This document shows positions 19,959-49,685 of a DNA stretch of 64,000 nucleotides, one piece after another. The position numbers were made by a program, and so were the translations under genes. A model generated the notes under the pieces. The model was not told the DNA's origin. It saw only the letters and a program-made list of their open reading frames with translations, and searched no databases. Source of the stretch: Rutstroemia sp. NJR-2017a BVV2 (Eukaryota; Ascomycota; Leotiomycetes; Helotiales; Rutstroemiaceae); contig NJPS01000041.1 of NCBI GenBank assembly GCA_002946415.1, positions 434,001-498,000 on the forward strand, read 5' to 3'. Positions within the stretch are counted from its first letter, which is position 1, and each line of letters opens with the position of its first letter.

Positions 19959-20869
19959 TTAGGACGTTGGTTTAACGCCAAAACTGAGTCCACTAACTCC
20001 GCCATTGATATAGTTTGCTTGGAAGCCCGAGTTGTTCGAACCGAAAGTCACCGTGGTAGGACCGCTCTGATTACTGTGCCCAGCGGCTTTCGCAACCGCC
20101 TCTTCCTGCGACTTACACAACAGCTCATTTAGCAGCTTCTGTGATGCTTCCACCCGGTTCAGAACTTCTCGGAGCTGTCGCATTGTCTCCCTTTCGCTTC
20201 CTTCGGATTCACCCGTTTCTTCATCATCGTCGTCACTAAGCTCGTCTAACTTGTGCTGTACGACATTTCGCTGTTGATTCGCTTCAACAAGGGCGCCCTC
20301 GACCTCAGTCTGCTTTGTAGATATCATTTGCTTGATCTCGTCCGTTATGTGGGTGTTGCGAACGGAGCTGTATCTGTCGAGGCACGTTTGACATTAGCAT
20401 ATATCTTGCGCGGAAATAATGGGCTCGGCATGGCTCACAAGGTCGCTATACTGACGACAGTATTGATGGTGAGCTTGCAATTCGCAAGTTGCTCAACCAT
20501 AGTATTAATTTCCGCTTTTTTCAAAAGTGCTACCTTTGCACGATCCTGCATTACTAATTTCCCATCACTTGAATGTCTAGTCCATCGTTGGAGATTGGCT
20601 CTAAAGGTGTCGCATGCCTGTGTGCAGCTACTAATCGTGACTTTTGACTCCTGGGCTACATCGTCGCCAAGCAACTTCCACTCTCTCTCCTCTACGCCTT
20701 TGAGCAGTTGTAGTGCTGTGTCGACAGCTTGTACATTTTCCGTGAGGCGCTTGACAGTCTTAGATGCATCTCTGAGCTGTTGCAGATCTTCCAGAAGTAA
20801 TCGTACGCCGTGTAAGGCTGGCACAACAATTCCTACGACACCAGCAGTAACACTCAGCGGATCAGCCAT
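19959..20869 (-). CDS. SesA-like protein with C-terminal amyloid-type motif
   Basis: This is a 281-aa protein. Exon 1 is 20869-20439 and exon 2 is 20373-19959. The 65-bp intron has donor GTGAGC, branch GCTAAT and acceptor GACAG, and the join reads SIATL-YSSVRN. The N-terminus, MADPLSVTAGVVGIVVPALH, is the start typical of the helical SesA/PigL_N-type domains (PF17107 or PF17111) found on fungal STAND proteins and their partners. A helical middle and an acidic stretch SDDDDEETGESEGSE follow. The last about 34 residues (248-281) form a Gly/Asn/Ser/Thr-rich motif: TTVTFGSNNSGFQANYINGG. A closely similar motif begins the divergently transcribed NLR at 21201. In Nectria (Fusarium) such motifs, called sigma, are reported to link SesA-type effectors to NLRs by amyloid templating. 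Assigning this protein to that class is inference from motif likeness and gene pairing. Confidence 0.72.
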
Positions 20870-21200
20870 TTCTGTTTGTTGACGATATAAAAGCTATGAA
20901 ATACAAGATCGTATAGAAAAATTTGCCTCTAATGCTGATAATGCAGTTTAAATAGAGATATCACGATTTAGTGCTGGTAGATAGCAGAAGAAAGGGGGGG
21001 GGGGGGGGTTGTATCAACGCGATGTAACGTCGAAAGACAGGGCTCCTATGGTTGAATTGTCTATCATCTGACAGAGGTGAGTTCTAGCTGATTGTCCAGA
21101 TGCGGCTGAGAGATCACACTTCGACATCACTTCGACATCACATTGATATGCTCAAGTGCTATGTATATCATCGTCGCGGCATTCTTGCTTAGGTCTTGCA
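20870..21200. promoter_or_regulatory. shared divergent promoter with a 15-G run
   Basis: 331 bp separate the start codons of the SesA-like gene (-) and the NLR (+). It contains an uninterrupted run of 15 G at 20994-21008 and a short direct repeat ACTTCGACATCA near 21118-21140. Joint control of the two genes is plausible from the layout only. Confidence 0.5.
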
Positions 21201-23969
21201 ATGCCGCCCACAGTATCTTTCGGGAACAATAATCATGGTTTCGAAGCCAATACGATTCACGGCCCAGTTTGTAACGAGTTCCATCAGCACTTTCCTGGTG
21301 AGTTAAAAAAGCCTAAGTTCAACTGCAATCGGTTGTTTCACCGTATTTGCGACGATTGAAACAACTGCTAGAACGTCATCACGCTTAATTACTTGTCGCT
21401 CTGAGTATAGAAACATCCTCGACGGCTGTTTCCGAAATCAAGAGAAGCAATCAGTTGATCTTTCATTACCTCCACCAGTGGAACAAACTGATGCTAACGA
21501 AGTTCGTACACTCCAGAGCGAATCGAAACCCCACCAAGCCCATCAATTCTTATACCTTTTGATCGCGACAGCCACTTCGTCGAACGAGGGACAATCCTAG
21601 ATCAGGTCTATCAGAAATGCAGTATCTCAAAGAGCAGGACCGCATTAGTTGGCATCGGCGGCGTTGGGTGAGAGGGAACACTTTTCGCGAATCTGGAGGT
21701 TCATGACTAACTTATCGCAAGCAAATCGCAACTCGCGATTGAATATGCGTACCGAGTCTTCGAGCAGTCACCCGAAACTTGGGTTTTTTGGATCCACGCA
21801 AGTAATGCCCCCCGATTTAAGCAGGGCTTTCAAGAGATTGCAGATCTCTTGAAGATCCCAGGCCGAGAAAATGCGCAGGCCAATATATTCCAGCTTGTGC
21901 GCAACTGGCTGCTCAACGGCAGCAAGAGCAAATGGCTTGTCATACTTGACAATGTGGATGATGCTCGCTTCCTTGTTGATACACCAAGCACCGGTCAAAA
22001 CGGGCAGGCGGATAGCACAGAGAATGCAAATTCACGACCGCTCGAGGCATATATTCCACACTGTGGTCATGGCTCGGTTCTCATAACATCACGAACGAAA
22101 AGGGCTGCACTAAAGCTAGTAGACGACCACGCTATCGTTACAGTAGAGCCTATGAACAGGACAGACGCACTGATACTCTTTAAGAAGAAGCTAGAAAGAC
22201 ATAGTGGTAACGATGGCGATAGTGATGATAACATCATGGACCTCGTCGAGGCGCTCGATTGTATGCCACTTGCCATAGTTCAGGCAGCTGCATACATATC
22301 CCGAAGAGCCCCCCGCTGTTCCATACGACAATACCTTGAGGACTTTCTGGAGAGCGACAGCCGGAAAACCAGTCTTCTTGAATACAAGAGCGAAATTCTC
22401 CGTCGAGATCCCCAGGCAAATAACTCTATCATTACTACATGGCAAATCTCCTTTGATCATATCCGCGAGATACAACCATCGGCTGCTGACTTATTGTCTC
22501 TTATGAGCTTTTTCGATCGGCAAGGAATACCTGAGGATCTACTTCGTTACCGAGCGGAGCAGAGAGATTCGCAGGAAAAACAGAAAAGCCGAGCAGAGCA
22601 GAGAGGTTCGCAGGAGAAACCGAAAAGCCGAGCGAAGCAGGGGAAAACAGGGGGGAAACAGAAAAACCCACGGAAGACAAGCGTCATCGGCTTGTCGCTA
22701 AGAAGTCTTTTCAATCGAAAAAGTGACTCCCGCGCTCCTCTGCAAAATCAGGACGGAGACAAGGACTCGTCACAAGACCGAAAAGAAAGCAATGATCATT
22801 ATATTAATACTCCTAGTAGTCACCACGATGGATATGGAGATGACGACTTTGAGGAAGATATCGTGGTCTTACGAGATTACTCTTTCATTTCTGCTAACAA
22901 CGACCAAAAAACCTTCGAAATGCATCGGCTGGTCCAACTCGCAACACGAAAATGGCTAGAAGCCCACAACGAAGAAGAGCGGTGGAAAGAGCGGTTCATC
23001 AAGAGCCTTGAGTCAGCGCTTCCCGAAAGCGGAAAGTACGAGAACTGGCCCAGGTGGCAGCCGCTCTTCCCCCATGTGCAATCTTCTGCAGCACAACGAC
23101 CATTAAACCGAGACGTATTGTTAGATTGGGCTTCAGTACTTTGCGGGGCGGCATCTTACGCAACAGACATAAACAACTATGGAGAAGCTGAGAAATTGTT
23201 AATCAAAGCATTGGAAGTTAGAGAGACGTTGCTTGGTCGACGGGCCGATGAAACGCTGCAGAGCATGTCGCTAGTAGGCGGGATCTATTATCTCACTCGT
23301 CAGTTGGACGCTGCGGCAGAGCTGCAATTACGGGTACTGGAGACAAGGAAACAGCTAGACGGAGTGGATGGTGATAAGACGCTGCATGCCATGTTCGAAT
23401 TATCCGCAACGTACGTAGATCAAAGTAAAAATGATGCTGCTGAACAGTTGCTAGTGCAGGCGAAGACAATAGTAACGGGAAAATACGGACCAGATAATCC
23501 GTTTGTGCTGGCCTTGTTAGCCTGTTTATCAACCTTATATAAGATTCAAGGACGCTTGGAAACAGCAGAACAGATTTTGGTCGAAGTATTAAACAGTCAT
23601 AGGAATCAATTGGGAACAGATCATCCTGAAACATTGGAGAATATGGCCAGCCTAGGACGTGTGTACTTGGAGCAAGAGCGGTTTGCTGCTGCTGAAGAGC
23701 TCTTTTTGCAAGTGTTGGCGACTAGGAAAATGATACTAAAACCCGACAATCCAGAGACGCTTTATTCTAAGCACGATCTGGCGTGCGTGTGGAGCAAAGA
23801 GGGCAGACTAACCGAGGCTATAGCACTTATGAAAGAATGTATACAATCAAGGACACGTGTTCTGGGACCCGAGCATCCAGATACTTTGGACTCCTACTCA
23901 GCATTAGATTATTGGAGAGCTGAGCAAGAGAAGTTGGCCAATAAAGACCAGTCTAAGCAAGGGCAGTGA
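21201..23969 (+). CDS. NLR (NB-ARC/TPR) with N-terminal amyloid-type motif
   Basis: This is an 831-aa STAND NTPase of the fungal NLR type. Exons are 21201-21297, 21517-21667 and 21722-23969. Intron 1 (219 bp) has GTGAGT, GCTAAC and TCCAG; intron 2 (54 bp) splits the P-loop codon. Domain order: residues 1-32 carry TVSFGNNNHGFEAN-IHG, matching the partner motif; linker ERIETPPSPS; Walker A GIGGVGKS (78-85); Walker B WLVILDNVDD (about 154-163); sensor-like VLITSRT; GLPL-like DCMPLAIVQAAAYISRR; a charged repeat insert (about 361-462); MHRLVQLATRKWL (about 482), resembling an MHD motif; and about six 42-residue TPRs (549-815). There is no effector domain at the N-terminus, as expected if the effector is the SesA-like protein encoded next door. 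The TGA stop at 23967 is followed by an open hydrophilic frame to 24110. Confidence 0.85.
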
Positions 23970-24110
23970 TCTGAAGAAAAGCAGTCTGAACCAGGCGAGT
24001 CATCCGATGAAGCGCACTCTGAGCAAGAAGCTAACGACGACGAGACCGAGCAACAAGTGGAAGATGTTCGAAGCCAGAGAAACGATGAAGACGCCCATGG
24101 AGCACCATGA
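23970..24110 (+). other. in-frame extension beyond the NLR stop codon
   Basis: After TGA at 23967-23969 the same frame stays open for 46 codons (SEEKQSEPGESSDEAHSEQE..), ending with TGA at 24108-24110. The composition (Glu, Asp, Gln, Ser) continues that of the NLR tail, which suggests former coding sequence cut off by a recent stop. Readthrough is a less likely alternative. Confidence 0.45.
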
Positions 24111-35457: not shown

Positions 35458-37584
35458 CTAAAACGACTGAGGCCATTTCCGCAAAATTTCCTCGTACAAT
35501 GGTTTCACAATGGTAAGAAAAATATCATTAAGCACTTCCGCGTGCTTCCCTTCGCTCATCATTCGTAGATTCGGAGGGTGAAGACAATTGCTAATCGGGT
35601 CGGAGAAAGTGGGGTTTTCTCCGTAGATAACATCCCATTCGACGCTATTGGCAAGTGCAAGGCAGTAGGCATGATAAGATTTGGAATTGCTTGCATTAAC
35701 CGGCGTAACTAATGCAGTGTCTGCCATCTCTTCGATTGTTTTGCCGAAGCATAGCTCGATTAGAACCACACCAAGACATTGCAGGAATATCCGGAGGGGA
35801 ATATCACTGGATTGTGATGGCTGACTGGTGGGTGCGTTCGTTCTGGGCGCGAATTCGTGGATAATGTATGGTTGACGAAAGATTGTTTGTGAGCCATCGT
35901 CGGATTTCTCGAAGAATATGTTTTCCTTGCTCCAATGTGTGTGAAGCCATTGGGTTTGTAGAAGCTCCAGGAGAGACGAAGTTAGAACTGTGGCAACCAT
36001 CATTCTTCGTTGGGCTGAGAAGTGCCTTTTGTCTCTTATGAGAACCTCTTTCAAGGATATGAGATTCTTGGAAGATGGAATATTCGATCGATCTTTAGCG
36101 GTAAGCTCATGTCTTGTCGTCTTATCATCCATTAAATACCCCAACGGGCAGTTCCAGGCTGCCAATGTTTGGACAGTATGACAGATATTGGAGATTTCTT
36201 TGGATTGAAGAGCCACGCTAATCTGCTGTTGCTGTCCGTCTTTCGGATTATGTTGTTGCTGAGATGGTGGATTTGGTGATGGCAATGCAGAGCCAACAAA
36301 AGCGGCTACCGTATTGTTGATAGGACTGGTAGGCATCAATGCAATGGCAGCTTGTGGAGCAATGGCAGCTTGTGGACTTCGAAGAGTATTGAATTTGCTA
36401 CTGGGGACTTTCGGATGAGAAGGCTTAGGTCTAAAGAACTTTAGTAATTCTTCATGCTGTAAACTGAACGCACTTGGTGGAATGGTTGATATATACCTAA
36501 ATGGGAGATGGTCTCTGAGAGAGTGTGTGAGGCTATGTCTCTGTGGGCTTGCGCTCGCGTCCTGTATAGTGTTGTTCTTACTGGATGAGATAGGTGCCAA
36601 TAGTTGTTTGACGTGCATTACAGGCTGGAGTGGCTGCAGAGAAATCCCTTGCTGGTTATCAAAGACTTTAACCTCCACTGCTTGTCGTATTTGAGGCTGC
36701 TCCTTCGCTGTCTGTGAAGCAATTTTGTTTCCTGATTGACTGCAGCCGACTCCATATTCCACTGGCACGATGAAAACTACATCAAATAATGTGTGTTTAC
36801 CCATCGATGTTCGAGATGGGCTCTCACAATGATCTAACCGAAGTAGAGTTGTGTGAGTACTGGGGCATGAACATGCCCAGGCTTTGAAAAGAGCTGAGTA
36901 TAAACTGCAAGCACTTTGCTGGACCCTTTCCACCAGCTTTGGGAAGGTTGAAAGAGACTTCGCTCCACCAGCACCCAATCGTTTATCTCTGATCTCAAGA
37001 GTTCGCTGGAGATATTCGGTTAAGGCATGTAGCTTTTCAAGTTTTTTGTCTCTCTGTTCAATCCACAGAGTCTCTTTTATTCTCTTCCATTGAAACTCCC
37101 ACCACTGCGGGGTGTAAGCATCGGCTTTCAACTGTTTTGAGTCAGCGAACAGCAATTTCTCGGCTCTGGATCTACCAACTGTCTCTGATATTTGTAGCTG
37201 GCGGCACAATTCATTCTGGATTTCCCAAATCTCCTGGATAGTTGCTAGAAACCAATCGTAGCGATCATCGAGCCGTAGCCGGACCGTTCTCTTCAATTCA
37301 GTACTCTGCCATATAGCGTTATTTTGGTCTCTCATACATTCCATAACCTCTTCTTCCGATGATCCCCTGAGGGGGAAGGGGTTCGGTGGCTCGAACAATA
37401 AATCCCGAATCACATTTTCGAAGAAGTAGCTCTCCGCATCAACCTTCCTACTGAAAGCCTCAAATTGAGTGCGAAAACGCCGCCAATTCTGACAGTGTTT
37501 TATGCCTTGCTTATATTGATTGAAAGCATGCGAGAGAACAGGATACGCGCCGAGAGCAAGACCTGCAACAGATAATGGATCCAT
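35458..37584 (-). CDS. DUF7580-type fungal protein (HeLo/prion-associated family)
   Basis: This is a single-exon protein of 708 aa when started at MDPLSVAGLALGAYPVL (37584). The frame is open 83 codons further upstream but lacks family features there. The N-terminal part has the conserved helical pattern ALGAYPVLSHAFNQYKQG, WRRFRTQFEAFSRKVD, DDRYDWFLATIQEIWEIQNEL, WEFQWKRIKETLW and VQQSACSLYSAL.KAWACSC. The middle (about 300-480) is Gln/Pro/Ser-rich. The C-terminal part has SLKEVLIRDKRHFSAQRRMMVATVLTSSLLEL, WLHTHWSKENIFF and IFLQCLGVVLIELCFGKTIEE, a protein-kinase-like shape (LxxTxWLH, LGVxLLELxFG) without catalytic motifs that I can see. Members of this family are common beside heterokaryon-incompatibility genes. 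The function is unknown. It lies head-to-head with the C2H2/acuF-type gene. Confidence 0.75.
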   Translation of the reverse strand: MDPLSVAGLALGAYPVLSHAFNQYKQGIKHCQNWRRFRTQFEAFSRKVDAESYFFENVIRDLLFEPPNPFPLRGSSEEEVMECMRDQNNAIWQSTELKRTVRLRLDDRYDWFLATIQEIWEIQNELCRQLQISETVGRSRAEKLLFADSKQLKADAYTPQWWEFQWKRIKETLWIEQRDKKLEKLHALTEYLQRTLEIRDKRLGAGGAKSLSTFPKLVERVQQSACSLYSALFKAWACSCPSTHTTLLRLDHCESPSRTSMGKHTLFDVVFIVPVEYGVGCSQSGNKIASQTAKEQPQIRQAVEVKVFDNQQGISLQPLQPVMHVKQLLAPISSSKNNTIQDASASPQRHSLTHSLRDHLPFRYISTIPPSAFSLQHEELLKFFRPKPSHPKVPSSKFNTLRSPQAAIAPQAAIALMPTSPINNTVAAFVGSALPSPNPPSQQQHNPKDGQQQQISVALQSKEISNICHTVQTLAAWNCPLGYLMDDKTTRHELTAKDRSNIPSSKNLISLKEVLIRDKRHFSAQRRMMVATVLTSSLLELLQTQWLHTHWSKENIFFEKSDDGSQTIFRQPYIIHEFAPRTNAPTSQPSQSSDIPLRIFLQCLGVVLIELCFGKTIEEMADTALVTPVNASNSKSYHAYCLALANSVEWDVIYGENPTFSDPISNCLHPPNLRMMSEGKHAEVLNDIFLTIVKPLYEEILRKWPQSF

Positions 37585-38082
37585 TGCATGGCCTTCTGTT
37601 AGATCAGATGGAGTCCCAGCAATGTAAAGCAAATGCAGTGCAGGCTGAAGATGGCCGAGAGAGCGACCGCGTAACTCCCAGCAACTTATTGCCTCAATCC
37701 AGCAATCAGTCCTCCAGTAGCTGCGACATAAATTGGTAGCTCCAATCTTTGAGACTGTTAAATGGTGATTATATAATGAGGTGCTCGGTTCCTGTGACGA
37801 GGCTGCAGGTCGTACAGACAAGGATTCGGACAAGATGTTTCCCCAATTCGTCGATGTTGCATATCAGCACCAAATCATATAAGAATTTTGTGCCTCAACA
37901 AAAAGACGACTGCTCGAAGTATTGCGGGTCTAGCCAGCTTTACACGTTGTAAGCGATCGTCGCGGTATATTTGGAGCAACTACTCGTTCTAGCTTTACGA
38001 CAATATCTATTTCGACTACCCCAAGGGCCCTGGTATCGGAGTCCGTCTTGTACAGTACAGTGCAGGCGCTCTTTCCCGCGAG
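37585..38082. other. divergent intergenic region
   Basis: The 498 bp lie between the DUF7580-type gene (-) and the C2H2/acuF-type gene (+). Most of it is the left copy of the direct repeat. An acceptor-like TCTAG at 37992 opens a frame (YDNIYFDYPKGPGIGVR..) that runs into the gene at 38083, so an upstream exon may exist. Confidence 0.5.
37789..38030. repeat. direct repeat flanking the C2H2/acuF-type gene, left copy
   Basis: This copy matches 40491-40759 along its length: CGAGGCTGCAGGT, AAGGATTCG, AAGATGTTTCCCC, CGAAGT.TTGCG, ACTACTCGTTCTAGCTTTACGA, GACAATATCTATTTCGA, AAGGGCC. Identity looks like about three quarters with small gaps. Confidence 0.8.
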
Positions 38083-41023: not shown

Positions 41024-43277
41024 ATGGTTAGGATTCAGAAACCGGCAAAACCTAAACATAGGAGAAAACGCAAGTTGAAGACAGCAAAGTCTTCTTCCAA
41101 AGTGACATCACAGTCTCAGAATGCCAGAACACGATTCCCGCACCTCTGTTATATATGTTACACATTGACATCTCGTATCTCTAAACTTCAGCCAACTATA
41201 CCGTCGGTGTTAAAAAATGGTTTAAGATTCCAAAGGACATTCAACCATTCCAAAGGCCAGCGGTGTTCTTTTTGTGCCGTTCTATTTCAGTCATTGTTGG
41301 CGCACAGGATCGAGGCTGACCTTAGAAAGCCTGTTCGCTTCATTCTAGCTCTTCCTGGACCAGAAAAAGATGTGTGCGAAGAATTGGAAGACTTATATTC
41401 CCTGGAGCTTTGGTGCGAAAACCATGTTAGGCCGGGGAAAACGGATCACAAAACTCGGGAGCTCGGAAAATTCATGGTATCTGCAACACTAGGTGAGCTA
41501 ATATCTTTATAACATATGAGCTTTTTATTGACCCAATTGAACAGGCAGTCCTGCGGCTCAATTCATAAGAAAACGCCCCCCTATTTTGGATATGAGGTCA
41601 CAGACAGTCTATGATGAAACAAGACAGTGGCTCCATGATTGTTATTCTCATCATGAATACTGCGCCCTATCTAGGACATCTTTCACCCCTACTCGAGTTA
41701 TTGATATTGGAGATTTAGATGGGTTTCCAAGGTTAATTGAGCCCGATGCTCAGTCCGGTCATTATGCAGCACTCAGTTATTGCTGGGGAAAGGACCAATT
41801 AGTTAAAACAATGACTGGTAACATCGAGGAGTTTTTTAAGCAGCTACCTATCTCGGAGCTGCAACAGACTCTAAAAGATGCGATTTGGACCACGCGGGAA
41901 CTTGGTCTGCGATTTCTTTGGATTGACGCTTTGTGCATTATTCAAGATTCCAAGAATGACATGATCAAAGAGTTGTCAAGGATGCATGAACTGTATGCCA
42001 ACGCATATGTTACTATTATTGCTGCAAGTGCAAAATCTTGCGATGAAGGGTTTCTGCAACGGCGTATTCAACTTCGAGACAATCCAGGAACTGTCAATTT
42101 CAAAGCCTTCAGTCTCCCTTACCGGTTCCAAAACGGTACCCTTGATGAAGTTACGCTACAGCCTTTTCAGTCATATCATCCAGATGTACATTGTATCAAT
42201 TCACGGGCTTGGACTTTGCAGGAAAATCTCCTTTCACCACGTATCTTAGTGTATGGATCACAACTCGTGCGGGAATGCTTCACTAGTCGGTCTCCTGCAA
42301 TTGGGCCTGGGCCGTTTCCCGCTCCGCAAACTTCATGGCTTGGCCGTGCGCCGCGCAGACCACCATCTCCGGATGGAAGGTCACCATCATCAACTTTCGA
42401 TACCGTGAAACATTTACAGGAGTTGCAGTCGTATTGGATTTGGGTGGTCAACGACTACTCGGAAAGAAAGCTCTCGTATATTAACGATAAACTTATCGCC
42501 ATTTCGGCCTTGGCTCGCCAGCTCAGCGTCATGGTTTTTAAAGATCATTCATATAAAGCAGGCTTGTGGTTTCCAAACTCACCAAACAAAACTTCTTTCC
42601 TCCACGATCTTTGCTGGACCACAGAATTGCCTCTACCCAGTCGAGATTGTTTATACCTAGCACCAAGCTGGTCATGGGCTTCATCCCATGTACAGACATC
42701 CTTGGGGGTTCGCATGGAACATTGGAGCCATCACACTGCGCTTCTGGAGACTGGCGCACCTTGCGAAATCGTCAGATGTGAGATCATTGCAGAGCGAGAA
42801 AACCCTTTCTCCCACATACTTGGCGGATCACTGGTCTTACGCGGCATTCTCACCGAGGCAAAAGTATCGAAAATCGACGTGAGTGAGTCAATCTTCGAAA
42901 TATATTTGCCCGGAGAAATTATTCTACCTTCTGAACTAGACCGTGTCTTGTCCTTTGCCAAAGCATATCCAAGCGAATCAGTAAACTTCAACTTAGCAAA
43001 TGCCGATACGACCAAGCCAACCTTTAAGTACGATCTTCGCTTTTCTGCCAATTTTGATATGATAACTCCTGAATTAAGACATGACTCTACTTCAGTTTCC
43101 GTTTTCTGTTTACGCGTGCTACGATATAAAGGTCTACTCTTAATGCCAGTACCAGATCAAAAATATCGCCGAGTTGGAACATTTCACTACAAAGATTTTG
43201 TTCGTGTATCTGGGGAGTCAAGGAAAGTTGAGGGATGTTTTAGTGGAATTCCTCTCACTCAAGTCACAATAGTATAG
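41024..43277 (+). CDS. HET-domain (heterokaryon incompatibility) protein
   Basis: This is a 733-aa protein. Exons are 41024-41492 and 41545-43277, with a 52-bp intron joining VSATLG to SPAAQF. It has a very basic N-terminus (KPAKPKHRRKRKLKTAK), then CSFCAVLFQSL. The HET domain (PF06985) starts at about residue 230: YAALSYCWGKDQLVKT, ELQQTLKDAIWTTRELGLRFLWIDALCIIQD, MHELYANAYVTIIAASA, and SRAWTLQENLLSPRILVYGSQ. The C-terminal part contains LAPSWSWASSHV, a common post-HET motif. HET proteins trigger cell death on contact with a non-self partner in several fungi; the partner here is unknown. The frame is intact. Confidence 0.92.
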
Positions 43278-47675: not shown

Positions 47676-49685
47676 TCACACAATCCGAACTTCAACCGGG
47701 TCGTTTCCAAGGCCATCTGCTGCCTCTCCGTCCATACATCCGTCGACATAGCAGTCGCCCACAAGCGCATAGCGTGGCTGCCAGTCCGAAGAACCGGAAT
47801 TGCTCTCCTCCGCGGGCCTCAAAATCAAGGGCATGTTCCCGCCGCATGCTATCCAAACCGCGTCACCTACTCTGGTGGTACGTGGCCCAAGGCCGATAAA
47901 ATCTCCTTCTGTGATGAAGAAGAGTTGGTTCCCCATACTGAGATCGATGCTCTGTCGCACCGATCTCATCAGCGTGGCTTCGGGGCCAGGCTCCATGTTA
48001 AGATCTGGCGCGAAAGTATTTTTTGCACATGCCAGCGCCCACCATTGCTGACAGGCCTTGTAGTCTTGTGGATGAGCTCTCGTGGGGCCCTCAATAAGGC
48101 CAGGTCTGTGTTCAACCTGCTTGAATGGTTGGAAGGTGTCGAGCATAAGTGTTCGCAGGAAGGGAATAGCTGAATCGGAATCTCCACCGACCGACGCCCC
48201 GCATTTCTGGATCCGTTGCCATAAGTTAAACCAGCTCTGCAGGACAGAGATCTTGGTATCGTCTGTTCCGAAATCCACAGAGTCTCCGACTGTGAGGATA
48301 GTCTGCTGCCGAGTTCCCCAAAGCGAGAGGGTCCGTTCCTTCCTCGAGAACATGGCAGGGCTTCCTTTCGCTGCATCAAACAAATCATAGATGTCCATAC
48401 GATCCACCTGCAGGTCGTCGTCGTCGGAAAGCCTGGACCAGTCTGGCACCCAGGATGGGAGATTAGCACGTTCCTCATAACGTAGCGCATGACTTAATGC
48501 ACCGAGGCTTCGCGATTGCCGGATATCATGTATCGTAGGCCAGGCATAGCAATCCACTAAATCGGCATCGTAGTCCGCTCTGAGTGTCTCTCGAACGTCT
48601 GGAGGAGAGAGGCTAAGAAATGCACAAACTTTATCCCTCGGATCGCTCGCTTTTCGTTTCCGATTGAGTGCAAGAATGTAAATCATATCATGAGGTTCGG
48701 CGCCCGGCAGCTTCTGGTCTTGATAATCCAGCCGTAATAAGTCCACGGAGGAAAAGGCGTGGTCAAAGATATACAAGCTATGATCATCCTCGACAGAGAG
48801 ATAGTCGCGGAAATGGGCACAGCATCTATCGAGATGAATTTCCAGGGTGCCATGGGCTTGAGATATCTCATGCCAGTCGATCTCGTGACGGCCGCATTTT
48901 ACCATTACCAGCCTGGGAAATATAAGTTCTTGGACTGTCCAGCTCCTTGACCACCATGGTCTCTCAAAGAGACCTTGTAATGGCTCCAATAGCCCACTGT
49001 AGGACAGAATACAGGCTTCAAGCTCCCTTTTTGACCCCCGATGCACCTCCAGAGATGCTAGAAACTCCTGAGAAAAGCAGGACCAGTCCTCGAAATGGCT
49101 CCCACTTGCCATCGATCGGATCAATTCAAATGCCCTTTCAGTAGTCGCATCCTCTTCGCCCAGCCAGACAGTGCAGAATTGGCACCCACCGTATATTTCG
49201 GCCATGAGGGAGACCTGAGACTCGCGTTCGGCAAGGTTTTACTGGTTGACGCAAATGGCATCCACCCAAAGAATTCGTTCTTGATCAAGATGACGTAGCC
49301 GTCTTAAAGCGACTTCAAGACTTTCGGTGATCCGCGAGCTGCGTCCGTCTATCAAAATAGAACGGGTGCTATGTGGATCGCCCCAGACATATGATAGAGC
49401 TTCGTATCGGGGATTCGTGCTCAAAGAGACGACAGAGAGTACTACCTTGATTTCTTCGTGTGCTTGGCCGGGGAGTAGGGTCATCAAGCGAATCTCTCGA
49501 GTTCCGGGCTGCAAAGCTGTGTAGTTGACATTGCCATATAGTTGGGAGAAAAGTTCGCTGTATCTTGACGTCCTCCCTAGAGCTTGTGATGGTGTTGAAG
49601 AGTATGCAGACATTGCCTTTCTAACATGTCGGCTATGGACATTATGACTTTGTAAGCATCGTTGTCGCAATGAAGGTGTATACAC
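47676..49685 (-). pseudogene. HET-domain protein gene with an internal stop codon
   Basis: One long frame runs from 49685 (or the second ATG at 49613) to 47676, about 669 codons, interrupted only by TAA at 49241-49239. Before the stop: YEALSYVWGDPHSTRSILID and HLDQERILWVDAICVNQ. After it, in the same frame: NLAERESQVSLMAEIY, QFCTVWLGEED, RPWWSRSWTVQELIFPRLVM, and the C-terminal CYVDGCMDGEA. These are the successive HET-family motifs (PF06985), so the two parts were one protein. Treating the stop as part of an intron would need a 28-bp intron, shorter than any other here. The stop lies where the family usually has Q, E or S after NQ. The rest is undamaged, which suggests recent loss, an allele, or readthrough. 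Confidence 0.82.

What the first reader, a model, noticed from the sequence alone, without database searches (positions are those of the whole stretch)
19959..23969. Divergent SesA-like / NLR pair with matching motifs at opposite termini: candidate amyloid-signalling immune module
The SesA-like protein ends in TTVTFGSNNSGFQANYINGG and the neighbouring NLR begins PTVSFGNNNHGFEANTIHG. In known fungal modules the NLR's N-terminal motif folds as amyloid and templates the same fold on the C-terminal motif of an effector encoded next door. Motif likeness, divergent pairing, a shared 331-bp promoter and the lack of any effector domain on the NLR all fit. The exact motif variant (F-G-x-N-N-x-G-F-x-A-N) may be a new member of the sigma-like group.
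Basis: partly seen in the sequence, partly recalled or inferred. Interest (0 to 1): 0.88.

Follow-up and report, generated by a model that had tools for sequence, protein, structure and literature searches.

The report
Fungal amyloid-signalling immune gene pair
Two neighbouring fungal genes, a putative cell-killing protein and a putative immune sensor, carry matching short motifs at opposite ends, as in known fungal pairs where one amyloid switches the other on; the motif is related to one resembling that of mammalian necroptosis but looks like a distinct sub-type.

Summary
At 19959-20869 (-) a 281-aa protein ends in TVTFGSNNSGFQANYINGGVSGLSFGVKPTS; at 21201-23969 (+) an 831-aa NB-ARC/TPR receptor (NLR) begins MPPTVSFGNNNHGFEANTIHGPV; 331 bp separate the start codons. 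Homologues support the exon joins; the public model of this NLR lacks the motif exon. The interpretation needs correction. The effector is HeLo-like (PF17111), not SesA. The motif is related to PP (RHIM-like; Pfam Ses_B, a misnomer), not sigma: profiles align with PP in register and no sigma profile matches. The layout is that of the tested HELLP/PNT1 modules of Podospora and Chaetomium. In 15 other genomes or contigs a motif-bearing effector and NLR share a contig. It departs from textbook PP: below the Pfam cut-off, N at the second core glycine in both partners, E at the core Q of the NLR. PP-like motifs in my set fall into two types, GFQAGxINGxV (here) and GLQVGxNxGxI (canonical); this genome has both. 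Whether they are insulated channels is untested, as are amyloid formation and cell death. New variant of a known kind; moderate interest.

The parts
19959..20869 (-). HeLo-like effector gene, 281 aa: exon 1 20869-20439, intron 20438-20374 (65 nt), exon 2 20373-19959 with stop
   Evidence: splice scan; PF17111 E 4.7e-25; 95% identical protein P0122 in Rutstroemia sp. NJR-2017a BBW
19995..20048 (-). C-terminal PP-like motif core TFGSNNSGFQANYINGGV of the effector
   Evidence: Ses_B (PP) 12.3 bits in register, cut-off 23.2
20870..21200 (.). 331-bp divergent intergenic stretch; shared promoter is inferred
21201..21297 (+). NLR exon 1, residues 1-32 with the motif; absent from the public gene model P0242
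21216..21269 (+). N-terminal PP-like motif core SFGNNNHGFEANTIHGPV of the NLR
21517..21667 (+). NLR exon 2: PERIETPP linker and first part of the P-loop; also absent from P0242
21722..23969 (+). NLR exon 3: rest of NB-ARC, DUF7779, TPR repeats, stop TGA

Best explanation
A two-gene NLR immune module of the HELLP/PNT1 kind. The TPR domain senses an unknown trigger and the NB-ARC domain oligomerises (inferred from NLR biology). This brings the N-terminal PP-like motifs together so that they nucleate an amyloid, which templates the matching C-terminal motif of the HeLo-like protein next door; its helical domain then acts at the membrane and kills the cell. Shown here: gene structure, domains, motif match, kinship to PP motifs, pairing in other fungi. 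Inferred: amyloid formation, templating, membrane action and cell death, by analogy with HELLP/PNT1 experiments in print (PMC7885112, passages and section 10 read).
For: Effector is PF17111 (E 4.7e-25); NLR has NB-ARC (22.6 bits, just under the 23.5 cut-off), DUF7779 and TPR, with a P-loop. Profile of effector tails (A2) against PP sequences (A4): E 1.1e-7, score 29.3, no gaps; 200 column-shuffled A2 profiles reach at most 18.0. NLR profile A3 against A4: E 2e-11, and 8.7e-11 without the one row they share. Ses_B/PP is listed at E<=10 for 22 of 27 tails and 20 of 26 heads in the two alignments. By a PSSM seeded from the same sets, the motif is in 98 of 120 listed effectors and 172 of 211 listed NLRs; at a strict threshold of 12, in 98 and 158. 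22 effector/NLR combinations share a contig, involving 19 of 120 listed effectors; four have consecutive locus tags: DV736_g918/g919, FQN54_008954/008955, ACEPPN_000485/000486, MMC30_009216/009217.
Against: The window's own motifs lie below the Pfam PP cut-off (effector 12.3-13.7 of 23.2 bits; NLR not listed). The G-phi-Q-phi-G core is broken in both, GFQAN and GFEAN. The window effector ranks its own NLR only 10th of 173, so the pair is not privately matched. The structure model (mean pLDDT 72, pTM 0.45) leaves the tail unstructured and matches generic helical bundles. No RNA, protein or phenotype data.
Confidence: 0.84

Rival explanations
1. A decaying copy: the pair once worked as a PP module but this copy has lost signalling, as the G-to-N and Q-to-E core changes and a possibly shortened NLR C-terminus suggest.
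For: The second core residue G stands in 89 of 98 effectors and 155 of 172 NLRs and is N here in both. Two canonical PP tails of the same genome also vary there (R at C47, E at C30). An acidic stretch stays open in frame after the TGA, and the C12 paralogue has an acidic tail inside its frame.
Against: Both reading frames and the P-loop are intact. The same unusual N stands in both partners and in the sister species' effector P0122. Q-to-E also occurs in 5 of 172 NLRs and 1 of 98 effectors, once in both partners of one pair (P0201/P0042).
Confidence: 0.1
2. The shared motif is a non-amyloid docking peptide that joins effector and NLR by ordinary binding.
For: Amyloid formation is not shown here; the AlphaFold model gives the tail no structure.
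Against: Profile kinship with PP motifs, which form prions in vivo (PMC7885112, passages).
Confidence: 0.04
3. A sigma-motif SesA module.
For: Sigma modules also pair such effectors with NLRs (PMC3321046, passages).
Against: No NACHT_sigma match in the motifs or the genome; no SesA match; no GxGxQFNxx or GGTQNINT units in the sequence.
Confidence: 0.02

Closest known systems
HELLP/PNT1 of Podospora anserina and HELLP/SBP/PNT1 of Chaetomium globosum (PP motif)
   Same: HeLo-like effector with a single C-terminal motif, NB-ARC/TPR NLR with the motif at its very N-terminus, adjacent genes, motifs align in register with PP
   Different: Right half of the motif is GxINGxV rather than GxNxGxI; second core glycine is N in both partners; the genes on either side are a GH35 beta-galactosidase and a PCI-domain protein, not a lipase
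HET-S/NWD2 and HELLF/FNT1 (HET-s related motifs, HRAM)
   Same: Effector/NLR gene pair, amyloid templating model
   Different: HRAM effectors usually carry two motif repeats; here one copy, and no HET-s family is listed by Pfam
SesA/SesB/Het-eN of Nectria haematococca (sigma motif)
   Same: Effector(s) beside an NLR with a shared terminal motif
   Different: Different motif, different effector domain family
RHIM of mammalian RIPK1/RIPK3
   Same: G-phi-Q-phi-G core in the family consensus; one of 26 NLR heads matches Pfam RHIM at E 0.0093
   Different: The window motifs are not listed as RHIM and lack the second core glycine

Membership tests
HELLP/PNT1 (PP) module | Effector and NLR genes adjacent | tested here: met
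   331 bp apart, divergent
HELLP/PNT1 (PP) module | HeLo-like domain (PF17111) on the effector | tested here: met
   E 4.7e-25, 88.6 bits
HELLP/PNT1 (PP) module | NLR of NB-ARC + TPR type without an effector domain | tested here: met
   TPR_10 143.9 bits; NB-ARC 22.6 bits (cut-off 23.5) with P-loop GIGGVGKS
HELLP/PNT1 (PP) module | Shared motif, effector C-terminus and NLR N-terminus | tested here: met
PP motif (PF17046) | Score over the Pfam cut-off | tested here: not met
   Effector 12.3-13.7 bits, NLR not listed, cut-off 23.2
PP motif (PF17046) | Central G-phi-Q-phi-G core | tested here: not met
   GFQAN and GFEAN; G, Q and G are all present in 83 of 98 effectors and 142 of 172 NLRs of the set
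PP motif (PF17046) | Profile kinship, in register | tested here: met
   family profiles
PP motif (PF17046) | Forms prion/amyloid and cross-seeds with its partner | not testable with these tools
   needs in vivo or in vitro work
Sigma motif | NACHT_sigma (PF17106) match | tested here: not met
   not listed; none in the genome at E<=10
SesA | PF17107 domain | tested here: not met
   not listed at E<=10; 16 other places in the genome are listed at E<=0.01
HET-s/HRAM | Two motif repeats in the effector tail | tested here: not met
   one copy (PP-like PSSM); no HET-s family listed; no HRAM profile was run
MLKL-like four-helix bundle | Fold match to solved HeLo/MLKL | tested here: inconclusive
   pTM 0.45; only generic helical matches; no related solved sequence

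The most novel reading that the evidence does not exclude
PP/RHIM-like signalling in fungi is split into at least two insulated channels, as HET-s motifs are into HRAM sub-families. The window's type, GFQAGxINGxV, and the canonical type, GLQVGxNxGxI, switch largely as a unit on the NLR tree, both exist in this one genome, and neighbouring partners mostly match in type. Within its type the window pair has drifted together (N at the second core glycine in both), and one HeLo-like effector may serve two receptors: its neighbour and the C12 NLR, which has the motif but no HeLo-like gene in the 19 kb read around it.
Probability: 0.33. Interest if true: 0.66.

Novelty: new variant of a known kind. 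Interest (0 to 1): 0.46.

Why it matters
RHIM-like amyloid signalling exists in fungi as PP. If PP has discrete sub-types that do not cross-seed, fungi offer a natural set of orthogonal amyloid switches, and this genome, which holds both types, is a place to test how a few residues set amyloid specificity. Pfam's profile scores the window's motifs below its cut-off and the public model of this NLR lacks its motif exon, so such pairs may be undercounted.

Tried and rejected
Sigma and SesA: rejected on profiles. At first I took Pfam Ses_B for the sigma motif; papers corrected this: PP is Ses_B (PMC8086366, passages) and 'PP (misnamed SesB) PF17046' (PMC12261475, passages). Chance: rejected.

Fold comparison of the effector (model of P0122, 95% identical, 66-row alignment) gave generic helix bundles. 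Profile searches of solved structures gave only weak unrelated hits (three for the effector, best E 0.14; one for the motif, E 1.1), so an MLKL-like fold stays unconfirmed here. No HELLP, HET-S or MLKL chain was among the 50 rows shown by either fold comparison.

A HeLo-like gene beside the C12 NLR: none noticed among the longer frames of C12:66000-84999, and none of the 16 PF17111 places listed for the genome at E<=0.01 lies on C12. Those 16 loci hold about 1.5 kb beside each match; by my regular expression only the window's shows the motif.

Limits. The pair permutation test is not corrected for phylogeny; the Leptodontidium 2 and Leptodophora rows have identical motifs. Three of 20 same-contig combinations differ in motif type. 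Contig identity was judged by equal contig length and organism name, read by eye; two combinations are from metagenome contigs without organism. Only the best 120 of 176, 216 and 3288 hits were listed in those calls, and the NLR queries held the window's motif, so the sets lean towards it. The 211 NLRs include P0242, the window's own NLR as publicly modelled, which lacks the motif. The PSSM was seeded from the same sets (17 of 120 effector hits equal a seed). Its first threshold was lenient; at 12, the best of the shuffled windows, NLRs fall from 172 to 158 and effectors stay at 98. Of the 22 effectors without the motif, 17 are under 240 aa. In the type counts 158 of 172 NLR and 85 of 98 effector motifs are distinct.
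Full report
What is there. The window lies on contig 36 of a 43.4 Mb assembly. A public protein, 100% identical over 90% of the NLR and from a contig of the same length (774,948), is named CJF31_00007170 of Rutstroemia sp. NJR-2017a BVV2, so this is most probably that fungus (Rutstroemia is placed in the Helotiales by the abstract of PMC6100615, seen). On the minus strand, 20869-19959, two exons encode a 281-aa protein; on the plus strand, 21201-23969, three exons encode an 831-aa NLR. The start codons are 331 bp apart. Splice sites are canonical, and the joined protein matches relatives across both NLR introns. For the effector two acceptors keep the frame; the 65-nt intron gives the family's IATLYSSVR junction. 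The public NLR model P0242 begins MHKSQLAIEY, so it lacks the motif exon and the first part of the P-loop; the WRK4 relative P0243, beginning MQYLKDKSQLAIEY, lacks them too.

Domains. The effector is HeLo-like: PF17111 (PigL_N; called Helo_like_N in PMC9815663, passages), E 4.7e-25, and no SesA is listed. The NLR has NB-ARC (22.6 bits, just under its cut-off), DUF7779 and TPR repeats. AlphaFold2 on P0122, the 95% identical relative, with 66 rows gives helices up to residue 242 and an unstructured tail (mean pLDDT 72, pTM 0.45). Fold comparisons are uninformative. The neighbouring frames tested are a GH35 beta-galactosidase and a PCI-domain protein.

The motif. Effector TFGSNNSGFQANYINGGV and NLR SFGNNNHGFEANTIHGPV share 11 of 18 residues. 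They are the only strong PSSM matches in six frames of the window, and the effector tail lists nothing else in the genome but the NLR exon. In relatives the tail reads FGxxNSGFQAGxINGGVSGxxFG and the head FGDxNSGFQAGxINGPV. The motif was found in 98 of 120 listed effectors and 172 of 211 listed NLRs, 158 of 211 at a strict threshold; 17 of the 22 effectors without it are under 240 aa and so probably incomplete. Of 27 effector tails 22, and of 26 NLR heads 20, are listed under Pfam Ses_B at E<=10, best 1.6e-6 and 8.5e-8; the window's head is not among them. Ses_B is the PP motif under a wrong name (PMC12261475, PMC8086366, passages). Profile comparison with 12 PP sequences gives E 1.1e-7 for tails and 8.7e-11 for heads (one shared row removed), without gaps; 200 column-shuffled tail profiles score at most 18.0 against 29.3. 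No sigma profile matches.

Pairing in relatives. Twenty-two effector/NLR combinations share a contig. With the window as the 23rd, 21 combinations from 16 genomes or contigs, the window included, have both motifs; the two others hold an effector model without the tail, and one of these also an NLR model without its start. Motifs are more alike within a genome than between genomes (BLOSUM 56.8 against 52.4, permutation p 0.00025; identity 10.7 against 10.0 of 18, p 0.0056; without the window BLOSUM p 0.0025). This does not correct for phylogeny. Telling against a private match, the window effector ranks its own NLR only tenth of 173, and the window NLR ranks its own effector third of 99; the C12 NLR head is as identical to the window effector (11 of 18) as the neighbour's head is, though lower by BLOSUM (50 against 60).

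What is odd about this copy. At the second core glycine the window has N in both partners. In the set N stands there in 2 of 98 effectors (one being the sister-species protein P0122) and in 0 of 172 NLRs. The NLR has E at the core Q, seen in 5 of 172 NLRs and 1 of 98 effectors; that one effector (P0201) sits beside an NLR (P0042) that also has E. This may be joint drift within a pair, but it is one case, and decay is not excluded: two canonical PP tails of this genome also vary at that glycine (R at C47, E at C30). The NLR stop is followed by an open acidic stretch in frame, and the paralogue on C12 has an acidic tail in its frame.

Two types. Coding columns 11 and 14 of the core by residue class gives two sharp groups, which I call AI (small residue, then I/V/F/L/M) and VN (V/I/L/M, then N/S/H/Q); the labels are mine. 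Among 158 distinct NLR motifs 66 are AI, 84 VN, 5 mixed and 3 outside the scheme; among 85 distinct effector motifs 67 are AI, 14 VN, 4 mixed. At the strict threshold the NLR counts are 65 AI, 76 VN, 2 mixed, 2 outside. On an NB-ARC tree without the motif (FastTree, 158 labelled of 165 rows) the AI/VN labels need 12 changes, so the groups are not just two clades; on the effector tree they need 3. In about 12 independent pairs on supported branches the second position follows the first in 8, goes the other way in 0 and does not change in 4 (median p 0.008). Of 20 same-contig combinations outside the window 17 agree in type (16 AI/AI, 1 VN/VN) and 3 do not. The genome itself holds both: AI in the window and in the C12 NLR head, and canonical VN motifs at C68, C47 and C30, seven Ses_B places over the cut-off. 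At C47 the motif ends one frame and precedes a NACHT domain in another. A third AI-like head on C23 seems to be a lone exon: no NLR body was noticed behind it by eye.

Relation to what is known. The closest tested systems are HELLP/PNT1 (P. anserina) and HELLP/SBP/PNT1 (C. globosum), where PNT1(1-31) and the HELLP tail form prions that activate the HeLo-like killer (PMC7885112, passages and section 10 read). The window pair has the same layout, so it probably works like them, but its motifs fail two defining PP features tested here (Pfam cut-off and G-phi-Q-phi-G core), so I file it as a variant. Division of HET-s motifs into sub-families is in print (PMC4518210, passages). The searches led me to no text on PP sub-types like these, but of their listings I opened eight papers in part only (PMC5485727, PMC9815663, PMC4518210, PMC3321046, PMC8086366, PMC7885112, PMC12261475, PMC12881547), no supplements and no figures. 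PMC9815663 lists two PP motif classes (NLR07 and NLR39; table read) whose logos I could not see, and one of them may be this type.

Noticed in passing
window 41541-43274 (+) and 47679-49238 (-): Two frames with a HET (heterokaryon incompatibility) domain, E 7.5e-28 and 2.7e-10.
   Followed up: partly
G000:C12:79280-79772: NLR paralogue with an AI-type motif head (NSGFQAGTINGPV) and a DUF7779/TPR frame of 727 aa; no HeLo-like gene noticed in the 19 kb read.
   Followed up: partly
G000:C23:50203-50304: Motif exon resembling an NLR head, with no NLR body noticed behind it: a probable relic.
   Followed up: partly
G000:C68:503509-509131, C47:5671-6152, C30:42815-42895: Canonical PP motif places, with NACHT frames at C47 and C30; closely similar 105-106-aa tail frames at C68, C47 and C30.
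   Followed up: partly
window 23970-24110 (+): An acidic stretch stays open in frame after the NLR stop TGA.
   Followed up: no
window 22550-22666 (+): Three 39-bp tandem copies (90% and 69% identical to the first) inside the NLR gene, giving a charged insert.
   Followed up: partly
window 20994-21008: Run of 15 G in the shared intergenic stretch.
   Followed up: no
window 35461-37863 (-): Frame with DUF7580, E 3e-21.
   Followed up: no
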